Of a stretch of DNA of 64,000 bases, positions 30,001 through 42,830 are shown one piece after another. Numbering within the stretch: position 1 is the stretch's first letter; every line of letters begins with the position of its first letter. The stretch lies in contig NC_080583.1 of NCBI RefSeq assembly GCF_029962835.1, forward strand, positions 69,363,158-69,427,157, given 5' to 3'. This DNA comes from Magnolia sinica. Lineage: Eukaryota; Streptophyta; Magnoliopsida; Magnoliales; Magnoliaceae. The position numbers were made by a program, and so were the translations under genes. Below the pieces are notes generated by a model that saw only the letters and a list, made by a program, of their open reading frames with translations, made no database searches and was not told the DNA's origin.

Positions 30001-33000
30001 TCAACGGCCACATCAGCATTACTAAAATCAATCACCTTTCCTGCACAAGAAATTTCAATCAGACGTTTGATAACATGCCACCGTGGCCCATGGTGTTTAA
30101 CCAACGCTACATACGATCTGAGCCTAAATGACTACTACTTCAATCCTCCTCAGTGGGATCGATGGTTCAATTTATCCATACCGTTGATTTGGTGGGCCAC
30201 ATCTGTGGATGTATCATGCACATTAATCCAAATGTTGTTCTCCATTATATTCAATGTGGACCATTGATTAATTTTTCTTTTCGAACCATCTATTTGCATA
30301 GCAGTGATCAAAGGGCTCGGATTGTCCATCTGGAGCGATTTTGAGGGTCTGGTCCATTTATGGTGGGCCACATCAAATCACCAATGTGGACCGCTGGAAT
30401 GATGGCCCCTGCTTGGAAGGACCACATGTTCCACCTGCAGCTACTCCTGTCAACCAGCAATATTTGTGTGACGTCTGATCCCTGCAGGTGGGCCCCACCT
30501 TTCAGATGACCTTGATGGGTTGATCTGCCCTGTACCCGGTGGGGTCCACCTAATGCACAGCTTGGGTCTCACACACGTGTAGGTGAAACCCATGGCACAA
30601 GCAATTTTGACTGGGAGCGGATTGGCTACTCCCCCTGACACCAGTCCTGTGGCTGATGTTCGGTGGTCTGTGGACCCCACAATGAAGTATGTGTTTCATC
30701 CATTCCGTTCATCAATTTTTAAAGATCATTTTAGTGTTTCATCATAAAAATAATATGGATATAAATCTTTAGTGGACCACACCACTGGAAAAACAAGTGA
30801 TTGGATATCCATCATTTAAATCCTCCTAAGGCCCACTGTACTGTTTATATGACATCCAATCTGTTGATTAGGTCATAAAGACACAGATTAATGGAAAAAA
30901 CAAATATCAGCTTGATCCAATGCTTTTATGGCCCCCAAAAAGTTTTTAATGGTCAACGTTCATTTAACACTGTTTCCTGTAATGTGATCGACTTGAGAAT
31001 GGGATATATCTAATTTTTTTAATAATATCATAAAATGATATATAAAAATAGATGGACAGCATGGATGAAACACATAAATCATTCTGGGGCCCACAGACCA
31101 CCGAACACCAGCCATTGGCTGGTGGAAGGGGGAGTAGCCAATCCGTTTCCATTTTGACTAGAGTTTAGAAAAATGATCCTCGACCACAGGCCTTGTACGC
31201 TATACTCGGCTTTTCAGTTACGACAGGAGAGGCCCACGTTTGAGTAATCCAGGCCGTTGATCTGTCGCATAATACTGTGGATGGACCATGCCTCAAGAAA
31301 CACCCCTTTTAGAAGATTCTATCCACCGATTCAGGGTACAATTCCTGTAGCGAGAAATAAACGGTACTAGCAAAAGGGCCTCGAAGTAATAACTTACCAA
31401 ATGAATGGGCAAAACCGTCCCAAACTGTGCTTCCCCTTCCATCCTCTTTTACCGCTCCTTCGTACTGTACAACACAGGGAAAAGAAATACAAACACTCAG
31501 TCACAAGAAATATGAACCGTCCATCCAGCATATGGTCTATTGTCAACATCTGAACCGTTCAAAAGGTGGATCCACCATGAAGATCATCTACCTTACGAAT
31601 GATCTGGGCCACGTATCCATGTGACCTTATGAACAGGTTGGATGGGAACTAAGCATCACGATGAGCCGTAGAAAGGTTTCAAAAGTGGTTATTATTATCA
31701 CGGCTGCTTCCTATGGTGTGATCCATTTGACCTTTGGATCTGCATTATTTTTTGGCTCATATATTAAAATTATATGGAAAAAAATGGATGGACGGTGTTG
31801 ATAAACCGGTCAATCACGGTGGGGGTCCTCAGAGGCCCAACAGTTCCGAGCTATGAACAGGGGTAAGTAATACATAATGGGCGTCCGATCATTTCCTGCA
31901 GAAACCGACAGAAGCAAACGACAAAGATTGTTTGTAAAACACGAGGACGTCTTGGCAAGAGGATGTTCGTGTAGGCTGAAGCTATGTAGGGCCCACCGTG
32001 AGGTCTGCCAGGAAACCACTCATCTATCAGGTTCAGAAGCTCACAACAGCAACTCAATAATTAGAAACATCCAAAAACTCAAGTGGGCCTCGATAGGACA
32101 CACTGGGGATTAAACGCTCACCGTTGAAACTTTTGTGGGGCCACAAAATTTCAAATCATGCTGATATTTGTGTTTTCAGTTCATCCCAATGGGAATAACC
32201 TTATGAATGGTTTGGATGGCTTATAAACGTCATGGTGGGCTCCATGTTTCAACGGTGTAGGTTTCCATTCTCATTATTTCCTTTCGTGGGGCATGTTGAG
32301 TTGGGCTTCCGAAACTGATGGACGGAATGGATTTCTCAAGGACACCATGGTGGGCCCCACATGACCTCAGCGTACAGGAACTTCATGTTGGCATGTCCAC
32401 GTGCAATTCGCGTGTACAAAACATGGAAAGGGATTGGCTACTCCCCCTGCCATAGCCAATGGCTAGTGGTCAGTGCTCTGCGGGCCCCACCATGATGTAT
32501 GTGTTTCATCCATGCCGTCCACCCATTCTTCCAGATCATTTTATGCTATCAGCCCAAAAATGAGGTTGATCCAAATCTCAAGTGGACCGCACAGTGTTGA
32601 TTGAACGCCTACCATTAAAAACTTCATCGGGGCACAAAAGTTTTGGATCAACCTGATATATATATATATATATCCCTTCATCCAAGTCTGTATGACCTAA
32701 TCAACAGGTTAGATGTCAAATAACATTACAGTGGGCCCTAAGAGGTTTTTAATGTTGGACGTTCAATCACTACTGTTTTCCCATGGGGTGGTCTATCTTA
32801 GATTTATATCTACCTCATTTCTCGTATCAAGCCCTAACATTATAATTCAAAATGGATGGATGGCGTGGATAAAACACATACATCATGGTGGGGGTCCACA
32901 TAGCACCGACCACTAGCCACCTAGCTAGTGGCAGCCTAACTAGCCAAACCACGTACACCTGAGATTTAAATCTACCTCATTTCTCGTATCAAGCCCTAAC

Positions 33001-36000
33001 ATTATATTTCAAAATGGATGGACAGGGTAGATAAAACACATACATCATGGTGGGGTCCACATAGCACCGACCACTAGCCACCTGGCTGGTGGCAGCCTAA
33101 CTAGCCAAACCACGTACACAAAACATGAGGTGCATGTGTATTTGTCCATTCAAAGATAAATGTGATACTCTGGTAGAGCGCGATGCTTGATAGGGATAGG
33201 CAGTTACTATAAAAAAAAATTGTATACCTGAACTATAAGGGCTCGTTTGGTTCCGTGGATTGGAGGGGGTTTCAAATCCCGTGTTGTTTGGCAGCATAAG
33301 TAACCCAGGGGGTATCCAATCCTCTCTTGAAGGGGGTTTGTAATCCACGATGAGGGTGAGAGCTTGGATTACACCTAAAATCATTTCAATAGTTGTAGGT
33401 GTAACATGTGTGTCACTGTATACTATCATTCTATTGGGCACATGGCCCACTAATGATGATCAGCACCGTCCAAACATTGTTCATGTAAATCAGCACCATC
33501 CAAACATTGTCCAGCATTATCCAAACATTGTCCATGTAAATCAACGATTAAAAATCGTTGGCTAGTCACTTAGACATGATCTTGTGCTTGTGGCCCATCC
33601 AAGACTTGGAATTTCATCCTTTTTGAGCAAAGCATATATTTCAGCGGGCTTATCAGAACCATTGTGTCAAAAATTACATATCTCACTAAATAGAGATATT
33701 AAAGTTGATTTAGTAATTAAATTCAAACCCCTGTAAATATACCATGGATAGGTACTTTTAATTAAAGTTGATTCACAATCCATGGTGCCAAACACACTAG
33801 GAGGATTGCAAATCCAGGGGGTTCCAAATCCACGCTCCCAAATAGGCTTTAAGTTACTCAAATAAAACCACCCTAATGTGGGCCACAACTTGGGTGGAGT
33901 ATAAACAATACATCACAACGATTTGATTATAAAACCAATCAATTGGTGGACAGTTGAATGTGAAAATGTCCAACCAGGTCTTCAGATCTATCCATTCGTT
34001 TTTAAAATTCTTTTTCACTTTCTAACAACCTTTTTTTTTTTCACTTTAAAACTACCTGGGCCCGATATTTAGGCCAGTGCATCCTCAAGATGGGCCCCAC
34101 CTTGTGGATGGTTTTGATTGTGCTTGTGGACCCACTATGGTTATTGTACATAATACAGCCATCCATGAGGGTTGCCCACCATGGAATTCCAACTATTTAA
34201 ATTAAAGAAGATCCAACTGTACGTTTACTTGTTCAATACGTAGGTATATGTTTGGCAGATACCATACTCATCAATAAAAAAAAGTAGAGTTTTTAACATT
34301 GCTTGTACTTGAAATTCTCATTGATAGACCTCATGTGGCCATCTGTAAACTTGGCTTCTTTAGATCCAGACCATCCATCATCCATTTTCGTCTAGGGCCA
34401 CTTTACTATAGAATGTACTGCATTAACGGTTCAGATCTAGTCTATGTATGCTATGTATGTGGTAACGACATGGTGGAACTATACCTCCTCTATTCCACTA
34501 GACCTATTTGTATCATATGACACCAAAAAAACAATGAAAAAACGACAGCTAAAAACCGTCAAGACCATGCATATAGTTACGAGTAACCGTATGGCGAGGA
34601 TAATTCAACGAGCGTGCGAGGATAATTCAACGAGCGTGATTAAGTTATTCCCTCTACATTCCACATGGTGGTCATAATTTTGGACTGTTAAGATAGACAT
34701 GCATGCACAAGCATCATCTGAGCAATGATAATTTCAACCATCTGCCGTTGTTTGTTTTAGCAATCGGTCAGCAGATCAAGTGGTATGGATGAGTTTTCAG
34801 TATGCAAGCAATGAATATAAAAGAGCCTATTTTAATTAGACAGAAAACAAGCCACCTCCATCCATACTTCTCTCGGGTGTCATAGATGCCGTTGCATCAA
34901 TTGCTTTCCCAACCTACCGCGGCCAATAAAAGTTTTAAATGGTGACCGTTTATAGTAATGCTTCTCTCCAAAAGATTTTGTAATTTTATTTATTATTATT
35001 ATTATTTTTTTAAGCTATTGGATAAATTAGGACTTCTAAGAAATTAGTTACTTCAAACAATGGTGATTACCAAAATAACTTAATTTAAAAGAACAACTTA
35101 TTTAGTTAGACAAGTTAAAAAAGCTATTTTTTTTTATGGTATTCCAAACACGCCAAGCTAGGCTCTTTAAACAACTGTGATAGTAACATTCATCCCTATA
35201 ATCTTGTTGTTCCTGTATGGGTACACAAATGGCATGGTGTTGAGTATAATAGTAATTATTAAGAATCTAACCGATATAGCAAAAGCTTCAGACAGAAGGA
35301 ACATGTCAAACAAAGTTATTAAACCCATGAGATGGTAACATATTTTTATTATTTTCCATAGTATAACCCACCTAATGATTTTAATTTATTTTAAGCATCC
35401 AATCATCATCATTGGATCCCTTGATACGCTAGTTGGATAATGCACACACAACAAGATGGACCCCACACAAATAGTTGAATAACATTTAGATGCAAGTGAA
35501 CAAGTTTTCACATGTAAACATGTCAATAACTTTGACATATATGGGTTCCAACTAGATAGAGTGTCACTCAACAATGAGGTCGTGAGTTTGAGTGCTCATT
35601 GAGAGCAAAGTAGGTGGGACCCCGGCCTCACTTAAGACGGTGTAGCTCTTACCGGGGATTACTGTGGGGCCCAACTTGATATATGTATTACTTATCTATA
35701 TATGTTATCCACCTGTTTTTTCAAATCAATTTAGGGCATTATCCAAAAAATGAAGCAGATCCAATTATCAGGGACTATATTATAAGAAATAGTAGTGATT
35801 AACTGTCCTATCATTATAATTTTCTTAGGGCTCAACTTAGTGTTTATTTACCATCCAATCGGTTGACAAGGTCGTGTAAGCTTAGATGAAGGCAAAAAAC
35901 AAATATTAGCTTGATCCAAAACTTTTATGGTCCATTAATGGTCGATCAACACTGTTTTCTATGATATGGTCCACCTGTTGATTACATCTATTTCATTTTT

Positions 36001-42265: not shown

Positions 42266-42284
42266 AGCCCACCCTATGCCGGAG

Positions 42285-42830
42285 TGGATTAGGTGATACC
42301 TGGGTAACACTGCGTGGGGTCCACGTTGATGAATTTGTTGTATATCCACCGTTCATCTATTTTGCATCTCTTTCTGGATGCAATCCCAAACTTTAAGTAT
42401 ATCCAAATCTCGGTTGGACCACACCATTGGAAATAGTTATAAATAATCATTAAAAACTTTTTATAGGCTACGAAAGTTGTGGATCGAGCTGAGATTTGTA
42501 TTTTCCCTTTATCCAGGTCTGATTGACATTATCAACGGGTTGGATGGAAAATAAACATTACAAAACCCTTATGCTGGGCCTAGGAGTTTTTAATGGTGGG
42601 ACATTTAATCACCATTGTTTCCTGTGGTGTGGTCCACCTGAGATTTGGATTTGATTAATTTTTGAAACCAAGTATTAAAATGGGCTGTAAAAAACGGATG
42701 GACAGTGTAGATATATAATACATGATCAAGGTGGGCCCCACGGTAAGGGTAACACACACTAAGCTGTTACCGGGGATGTTGATCTCATGAAAGGTGGGGG
42801 TATAGAACCCAATCCGCGCCCCAAAAAGCC
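42285..42830. mobile_element. Palindromic MITE copy
   Basis: The left end is GGAGTGGATTAGGTGATACC and the arm includes GGGTAACACTGCGTGGGGTCC. The right arm has GTGGGCCCCACGGTAAGGG and ends near ACCCAATCCGCGCC. Confidence 0.6.

What the first reader, a model, noticed from the sequence alone, without database searches (positions are those of the whole stretch)
30613..42830. A near-palindromic Mutator-type MITE family saturates the window
At least fifteen full or partial copies (30613, 31985, 32426, 35630, 38950, 39942, 40571, 41480, 42285 and those at 1-18 kb) share one design. The left half is close to the reverse complement of the right half, so nearly the whole 450-540 bp unit folds on itself. 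Three copies have 9-bp duplications (ATTTTGACT, CAAAACATG, TTCATTTAT/TTCATTGAT), which is Mutator-like. The termini share GGGAACGGATTGG or CGGATTGCGTGC while the next 20-60 bp differ between subfamilies. I know of no named family with this consensus, but I cannot search.
Basis: partly seen in the sequence, partly recalled or inferred. Interest (0 to 1): 0.75.

Follow-up and report, generated by a model that had tools for sequence, protein, structure and literature searches.

The report
MULE-driven palindromic MITEs, varied ends
The repeats are small non-coding jumping DNA elements of the Mutator kind that fold back on themselves, are very numerous in this plant genome, and carry one shared middle part with several different end pieces, two of which match the ends of full-size transposons in the same genome.

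Summary
A profile from 8 copies finds 36 stretches (10.3 kb, 16% of the window); shuffled and reversed controls reach at most 5.8 bits. The window's own 1.84-Gb genome was searchable, and the family is very large there: a 14-base core word occurs 29,173 times against 17 for its reversed control, one end word 6,485 times against 0. Target duplications are 9 bp: 13 of 25 end-A pairs are clean (0.7% of swapped flanks), as are 5 of 14 end-B pairs (0 of 182).

Each copy has a common 12-13-bp outer end, a 40-50-bp end cassette alike at both ends, and a shared foldback core. Cassettes A and B are unrelated. FAR1-MULE-SWIM transposase elements carry cassettes B and D without core beside the cassette; one is complete with a 129-bp TIR and a 9-bp duplication. 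Another MULE type holds core modules inside 1.68-kb TIRs. So these are Mutator MITEs, very probably moved by several related MULEs. Whether the core switched drivers is open. No driver was found for A, the largest subfamily counted.

The parts
30613..31150 (+). full copy, end cassette A at both ends
   Evidence: profile 423.5 bits; GGGAGCGGATTGGCTACTCCCCC / GGAAACGGATTGGCTACTCCCCC
30604..30612 (.). target duplication ATTTTGACT (left)
   Evidence: exact 9 bp with 31151-31159
31151..31159 (.). target duplication ATTTTGACT (right)
32426..33117 (-). copy with cassette A at its left end; right end tandemly duplicated (32797-32958 repeated at 32959-33119, 93.8%)
32416..32425 (.). target duplication ACAAAACATG (left)
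   Evidence: 10 bp exact with 33118-33127
33118..33127 (.). target duplication ACAAAACATG (right)
39942..40420 (-). full copy, GGGAACGGATTAGG / GGGAGTGGATTAG ends
   Evidence: profile 389.3 bits
39933..39941 (.). target duplication TTCATTTAT (left)
   Evidence: 8 of 9 with TTCATTGAT
40421..40429 (.). target duplication TTCATTGAT (right)
40566..41090 (+). full copy, end cassette B (CGGATTGCGTGCTGAGT); no significant duplication
   Evidence: profile 396 bits; row W
41472..42001 (+). full copy, right end cassette A, left end diverged; 86% identical in inverse to 32425-32958; no duplication
38950..39484 (-). full copy, CGCGGATTGC ends; no duplication
   Evidence: profile 266 bits
42279..42760 (-). 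full copy, GTGGATTAGG left end; no duplication
   Evidence: profile 375.4 bits
42001..42182 (-). partial copy
35653..36048 (+). core without recognisable ends
31616..31843 (-). partial copy
31974..32369 (-). diverged core
38011..38430 (-). old diverged core
   Evidence: 53.8 bits
29383..29807 (+). old diverged core
   Evidence: 73.0 bits
15345..15656 (-). partial copy
15686..16192 (+). full copy, GACGCGGATTG / AACGCGGATTG ends
16252..16810 (+). copy with an internal 98-bp tandem duplication (16349-16447 / 16447-16545)
17637..18085 (-). core, strongly folding
   Evidence: 388.6 bits; z -11.7
7954..8493 (+). partial copies (7954-8310, 8372-8493)
3632..4015 (-). diverged core
1141..1945 (.). four core fragments (1141-1277, 1396-1566, 1565-1686, 1801-1945)

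Best explanation
These are non-autonomous foldback MITEs of the Mutator superfamily. SHOWN: 9-bp target duplications; a three-part design (common 12-13-bp outer end GGRANCGGATTG; a 40-50-bp end cassette alike at both ends of a copy; a shared core of two ~190-bp inverted arms round an asymmetric centre); and MULE elements with a FAR1-MULE-SWIM transposase that carry the outer end and the cassettes of two MITE subfamilies (B and D). INFERRED: the MULE transposase recognises outer end plus cassette and moves the MITEs in trans, so each cassette marks its driver, while the core is a passenger or helper common to several. The palindrome was present in the founders and is not renewed copy by copy; after insertion each copy decays.
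For: 9-bp duplications: 13 of 25 end-A pairs against 0.7% of swapped flanks; 5 of 14 end-B pairs against 0 of 182. Uniform size: in the 100 listed places of the A-cassette word (of 6,485), 11 of the 13 facing (+/-) neighbours within 2 kb lie 507-510 bp apart (one 500, one 1,149), which fits an element of about 538 bp. Drivers: C12:4929001-4938283 (L065) is a complete 9.3-kb MULE with a 129-bp TIR (86.8%), an exact 9-bp duplication TTCCTCTCA (flanks read), and a cassette scoring 19-23 with MITE ends in L006, L040 and L054, shuffled maximum 13.5. MULE ends at L066, rel1 (both ends) and rel3 have best scores of 24-28 with subfamily-B MITE ends, shuffled maxima 12-13.5. Both proteins have PF10551, PF03101 and PF04434 over cut-off and are 69% identical. 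Cassettes A and B are unrelated (best local score 8.0 in 84 pairs, shuffled maximum 12.0) while the core is shared (0.756). Foldback: L055 folds at -287 kcal/mol, z -19.7.
Against: No driver with cassette A, the largest subfamily counted, was found; two 6-kb candidate spans were only unrelated MITE pairs. The L066-type MULE has no readable duplication: rel1 and rel2 share DNA outside the 3' end with L066, so they are at least partly segmental duplications, and L066 has lost the outermost bases at one end. 12 of 25 A pairs and 9 of 14 B pairs show no clean duplication. Mobilisation in trans was not observed. Both ends of a copy fall in the same cassette cluster in 28 of 38 copies (chance 0.30); of the 10 exceptions, 4 are long and short versions of B by eye and the rest are unresolved or misplaced ends. 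The A and B samples were picked by exact end words.
Confidence: 0.85

Rival explanations
1. Co-divergence: the core is the inner part of an ancestral MULE TIR (cassette plus core arm). The cassette diverged together with its transposase, and each MULE lineage shed its own MITEs by internal deletion; the sampled L065 and L066 MULEs lost the core later. The core never changed drivers.
For: M61 and M60 carry three core modules inside each 1.68-kb TIR (TIRs 97.3% and 92.3% identical), so MULEs with core inside the TIR exist. The cassettes of L065 and L066-type MULEs are diverged relatives of each other (scores 19.5-20, shuffled maximum 12.5), as their transposases are (69%); L065 cassettes also score up to 17 with B MITE ends.
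Against: No core follows the cassette in L065 (both ends) or in the inner 1.3 kb of rel3. L066 has one core module about 200 bp inside its right TIR, but with ends of its own, read as a nested MITE. M61 ends showed no match to A or B ends and its transposase is 33-37% identical to L065/L066. Cassettes A and B are unrelated.
Confidence: 0.5
2. Driver switching: one palindromic core acquired new end cassettes from different MULEs, both ends together, by recombination or by MULE-type sequence capture, and so stayed mobile as drivers changed.
For: Same core under the unrelated cassettes A and B, each at both ends. Within A the terminal 60 bp are not differentiated between left and right ends, while the core arms are (arm consensuses 79% identical).
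Against: No convincing hybrid copy (one cassette left, another right) among 38 two-ended copies. B and D cassettes are related, which needs no swap. Purifying selection on the ends would also keep them alike.
Confidence: 0.3
3. Arm-to-arm conversion keeps each copy palindromic after insertion.
For: Left-right identity within a copy exceeds that between copies (67.5% against 62% in 12 copies; 0.659 against 0.611 in 94 modules).
Against: Against the nearest relative the excess vanishes and turns slightly negative (-1.45% for 94 modules, -1.1% for 35 A copies, -0.9% and not significant for 49 others), so subfamily structure explains it.
Confidence: 0.03
4. A non-Mutator element (for example hAT, 8-bp duplications) or simple duplicated DNA rather than a transposon.
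For: Many copies have no readable duplication; two A rows, from one segmentally duplicated locus, show 8 bp.
Against: 9-bp mode in A and MULE transposase elements with matching ends.
Confidence: 0.03

Closest known systems
MuTAnT / AutoMuTAnT, Medicago truncatula (PMC4486113; passages read)
   Same: MULE with 9-bp duplications, modular foldback TIRs, short non-autonomous members with a related autonomous element; M61 ends lie in a TA array as MuTAnT ends do
   Different: The duplications read for the A and B MITEs are not TA arrays; here one core is shared by subfamilies with different cassettes
MULEs with tandem TIRs in tomato and Arabidopsis (Ferguson and Jiang 2012, PMC3310237; passages read)
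   Same: Several TIR-like units in tandem at each end, as in M61 and M60
   Different: In M61 and M60 each unit is itself a near-palindrome related to the free MITEs
Mutator-type plant MITEs in general (PMC12550479: 41.5% of MITEs in 207 plant genomes; passages read)
   Same: Short, inverted repeats, Mutator-type
   Different: A core shared across unrelated end cassettes is not mentioned in the passages read
FARE foldback MULEs of Arabidopsis (named in a PMC4486113 passage; otherwise recalled)
   Same: Long palindromic ends
   Different: Not compared by sequence

Membership tests
Mutator superfamily (MULE) | 9-bp (8-11) target duplication | tested here: met
   complete MULE L065 also 9 bp
Mutator superfamily (MULE) | ends shared with an element encoding a MULE transposase | tested here: met
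   B and D cassettes plus outer end on L066-type and L065 elements. Not found for cassette A
Mutator superfamily (MULE) | moved by that transposase | not testable with these tools
   needs a transposition or binding assay
MITE | short, terminal inverted repeats, high copy number, uniform length | tested here: met
   about 480-590 bp in the accepted pairs; 11 of 13 A-cassette spacings 507-510 bp; 6,485 A-cassette words
MITE by simple internal deletion | MITE interior present in the autonomous partner next to the ends | tested here: not met
   no core beside the cassette in L065 (both ends), rel3 5' end, or the 175 and 666 bp seen inside rel1 ends; L066 has one module 200 bp inside with its own ends. 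Met only in M61/M60, whose ends differ
Foldback element | most of the unit self-complementary | tested here: met
   L055 z -19.7; window copies 31-67% arm-paired, so old copies fall short; centre not palindromic
Named repeat family in a plant library | match to a library consensus | not testable with these tools
   no repeat library held; 7 sequence words gave 0 papers

The most novel reading that the evidence does not exclude
One ancient palindromic core has outlived its drivers by being re-ended with the TIR cassettes of successive MULEs, so that a single MITE body has been moved by several transposases and amplified to the order of a hundred thousand copies.
Probability: 0.3. Interest if true: 0.65.

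Novelty: new variant of a known kind. Interest (0 to 1): 0.48.

Why it matters
MITEs are usually explained as deletion products of one driver, sharing ends with it while interiors differ (established view, recalled). Here the interior is constant and the ends vary, and two end types can be tied to transposase loci in the same genome. That makes driver switching against co-divergence testable with ordinary sequence surveys and binding assays, and names autonomous candidates for a very abundant non-coding family.

Tried and rejected
Dyads in the cassettes: some cassettes look like small hairpins, but over 20 cassette clusters the mean folding z was -0.70, the same as 40 control core windows (-0.70). 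Per-copy arm conversion: not upheld by the nearest-neighbour control. Autonomous A element at C1:10406452/10412624 and C1:11464616/11470710: each end runs into MITE core and the 901-bp middle pieces match none of the eight MULE proteins, so these look like separate MITEs. TIRs of the MULEs L059, L062, L063 and L064 were not found within 8 kb. First clusterings of cassettes by single linkage merged nearly everything and were replaced by average linkage. TCP-like sites (GTGGNCCAC, GTGGGNCCCAC; motifs recalled) are far denser in modules than in the rest of the window, but this follows from repetition of one sequence and is only a lead. Two core patterns, in three scans of the viral and prokaryote contig collections, had no exact match. 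Rfam at gathering threshold: 0 matches in the window. Pfam on the ten window ORFs of 150 aa or more (stop to stop) found no MULE domain; tblastn of eight MULE proteins gave one weak window match (29% over 82 aa, E 8e-4, 32295-32534) and three with E above 0.7, not pursued.
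Full report
Check of the observation. Self-comparison of the window and a profile built from eight copies confirm the repeat family: 36 stretches with E<1e-3, 10.3 kb or 16% of the window, against a best score of 5.8 bits in five shuffled and one reversed window. Copies concentrate at 1-18 kb and 29-43 kb; one 117-bp piece lies beyond 43 kb. The consensus of 12 copies matches its own reverse complement at 354 of 464 aligned positions, with arm consensuses 88% identical and a non-palindromic centre of about 100 bp.

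Genome-wide counts. The window lies in G000, 1,838,573,281 bases in 127 contigs. GGGAACGGATTGG occurs 2,283 times against 16 for the reversed word, the A-cassette word GGATTGGCTACTCCCCCTG 6,485 against 0, the B word CGGATTGCGTGCTGAGT 135 against 0, and the core word AGTGGACCACACCA 29,173 against 17. The core word is intact 19 times in 106 near-full modules, which gives very roughly 160,000 module equivalents; the 106 modules are a biased sample (window, loci chosen by end words, MULE regions; the A loci all from contig C1), so this is an order of magnitude only. At about 450 bp each that would be some 4% of the genome (inference).

Target duplications. Of 28 A loci fetched by the exact end word, 4 gave no end pair and the rest 25 pairs; 13 score 7 or more for a duplication directly abutting the ends, against 0.7% of 600 swapped-flank pairs; of 15 with score 6 or more, 13 are 9 bp and 2 are 8 bp. 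Two of the 13 (L039, L047) are segmental duplicates of other rows, and three of the 25 pairs (L006, the second of L048, L052) look spurious. Of 20 B loci, 13 had both ends, plus the window copy at 40566; 5 of these 14 have a duplication of 8-11 bp (one with one mismatch) against 0 of 182 swapped pairs, with up to 6 bases of play at each end; in the clearest two the element starts five bases before CGGATTG. So A and B share the outer design GGRANCGGATTG.

Anatomy. In A the terminal 60 bp are as alike between the two ends of one copy (0.873) as between copies (0.879), while the core-arm consensuses are 79% identical left to right. Copies were not put in one orientation, so its arm figures mix arms. 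Between A and B, bases 13-60 align at the shuffled level (0.661 against 0.667) and the core at 0.756; local scores agree (best 8.0 in 84 pairs, shuffled maximum 12.0). B and D cassettes are weakly similar (best 13.0 against 12.5) and the best A-D pair reaches 17 against 13. Both ends of a copy fall in one cassette cluster in 28 of 38 two-ended copies, chance 0.30. Left-right identity within copies exceeds that between copies, but not when the nearest relative is the yardstick; the palindrome is therefore inherited from founders, not renewed. A well-preserved copy folds at -287 kcal/mol, z -19.7; 11 window copies have z from -2.4 to -11.7 with 15 shuffles each. Identity to the A consensus averages 0.80 (0.625 to 0.935, 35 copies), so the family is mostly old with a few younger copies.

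Drivers. PF10551 gives 150 scored of 1,104 candidates in the genome. Eight regions of 8 kb round different MULEs, one per cluster of the best 30, were fetched. L066 (C15) has an 881-aa open frame and ends AGAATCGGATTGTGTACTGAGTAACTCAGTACGC on one side and the inner part of the same cassette on the other. Its relatives rel1 (C12:50388467) and rel3 (C19:45993531) start GGGAATCGGATTGTGTACTGAGT(T/A)ACTCAGTACC; in rel1 a diverged copy of it stands at the other end too. Best scores of these ends with subfamily-B MITE ends are 24-28 against shuffled maxima of 12-13.5. rel1 and rel2 share DNA outside the 3' end with L066, so they are not clearly independent insertions. L065 (C12) is complete: 9.28 kb, TIR 129 bp at 86.8%, ends GGGAGCGGATTGGATACTGAACACTTCAGTAGCC and GGGACCAGATTGGATACTGAATACTTCAGTAGCC, flanked by TTCCTCTCA on both sides (left flank, right flank). 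Its cassette matches other MITE ends (L006, L040, L054; 19-23 against 13.5) and, less well, B ends (up to 17). L065 and L066-type cassettes are themselves relatives (19.5-20 against 12.5). Both proteins have FAR1, MULE and SWIM domains over cut-off and are 69% identical over 633 residues; the L065 frame has a stop. Core beside the cassette: none at either L065 end or in the 1.3 kb inside rel3; L066 has one module about 200 bp inside its right end with ends of its own, which I read as a nested MITE; only 175 and 666 bp inside rel1 were seen. No MULE with cassette A was found.

A third arrangement. M61 (C3) and M60 (C12) are MULEs with 1.68-kb TIRs, 97.3% and 92.3% identical between their two ends, each TIR holding three core-related palindromic modules, the innermost cut by the TIR edge; the ends lie in TA arrays. 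The M61 frame is 772 aa; the M60 frame is broken into three pieces. Their outer end word occurs 48 times in the genome, including a second 8.3-kb pair at C2:131988621/131996919 that encloses a PF10551 match. A cassette word of their modules occurs 36 times, 6 of them within 4 kb of a listed MULE match. This is the modular foldback TIR design described for MuTAnT (PMC4486113, passages read) and recalls tandem-TIR MULEs (PMC3310237, passages read).

How it most likely works. Shown: Mutator-type duplications, ends shared with MULE transposase elements, one core under different cassettes. Inferred: the transposase of each MULE lineage recognises outer end plus cassette and moves the MITEs in trans. 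Open: whether the core changed cassettes (driver switching, 0.3) or cassettes and transposases diverged together while each lineage shed MITEs from a TIR that once held the core (0.5). The relatedness of the B and D cassettes favours the second, the unrelatedness of A and B the first.

Novelty. Mutator MITEs, foldback MULEs and tandem TIRs are all known. The constant core with variable ends, two of them tied to transposase loci, is the unusual part; I did not see it described in the listings and passages of the paper searches made, which cover open-access text only. No repeat library was available.

Noticed in passing
8529-15236: Copia-type LTR retrotransposon: 573-bp direct repeats 91.6% identical at 8529-9101 and 14665-15236 enclosing gag, pre-integrase and integrase-like pieces on the minus strand.
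   Followed up: partly
53103-61255: Large inverted pair (53103-54573 with 59805-61255, 54813-56097 with 58291-59572, 72-73%); the outer edges read TGTAGCACCCTGAAAATTGG and TGTAACACCCTGAAAATTGG, perhaps two retroelement pieces facing each other.
   Followed up: partly
L061 and L060 with flanks (C3:47316400-47329600, C12:69475600-69488800): MULEs with 1.68-kb TIRs made of three palindromic modules and inserted in TA arrays.
   Followed up: partly
32797-33119: The right end of the copy at 32426 is tandemly duplicated (93.8%), and the target duplication lies outside the second unit, so the extra end was gained after insertion or moved with the element.
   Followed up: no
16349-16545: 98-bp internal tandem duplication (98%) inside a MITE copy.
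   Followed up: no
window modules: TCP-factor-like words (GTGGNCCAC, GTGGGNCCCAC; recalled motifs) are dense in the core, and the GTGGACCAC blocks are among its most conserved 12-mers.
   Followed up: partly
4913-5722: Minisatellite-like direct repeats, mostly 71-77% alike.
   Followed up: no
19365-20000 and 24444-24908: Expansin coding piece and a glycosyl hydrolase family 1 piece.
   Followed up: no
L063, L064 (C1:123541724, C9:78587221): A FAR1-MULE-SWIM protein family with many copies about 96-98% identical and no TIR found within 8 kb.
   Followed up: no
L098 799-1797: Two MITE modules lie side by side near the MULE at C10:2618021, the first with yet another cassette (GGAAGCGGATTGCGTGGTGTGCCACGCAATACTG).
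   Followed up: no
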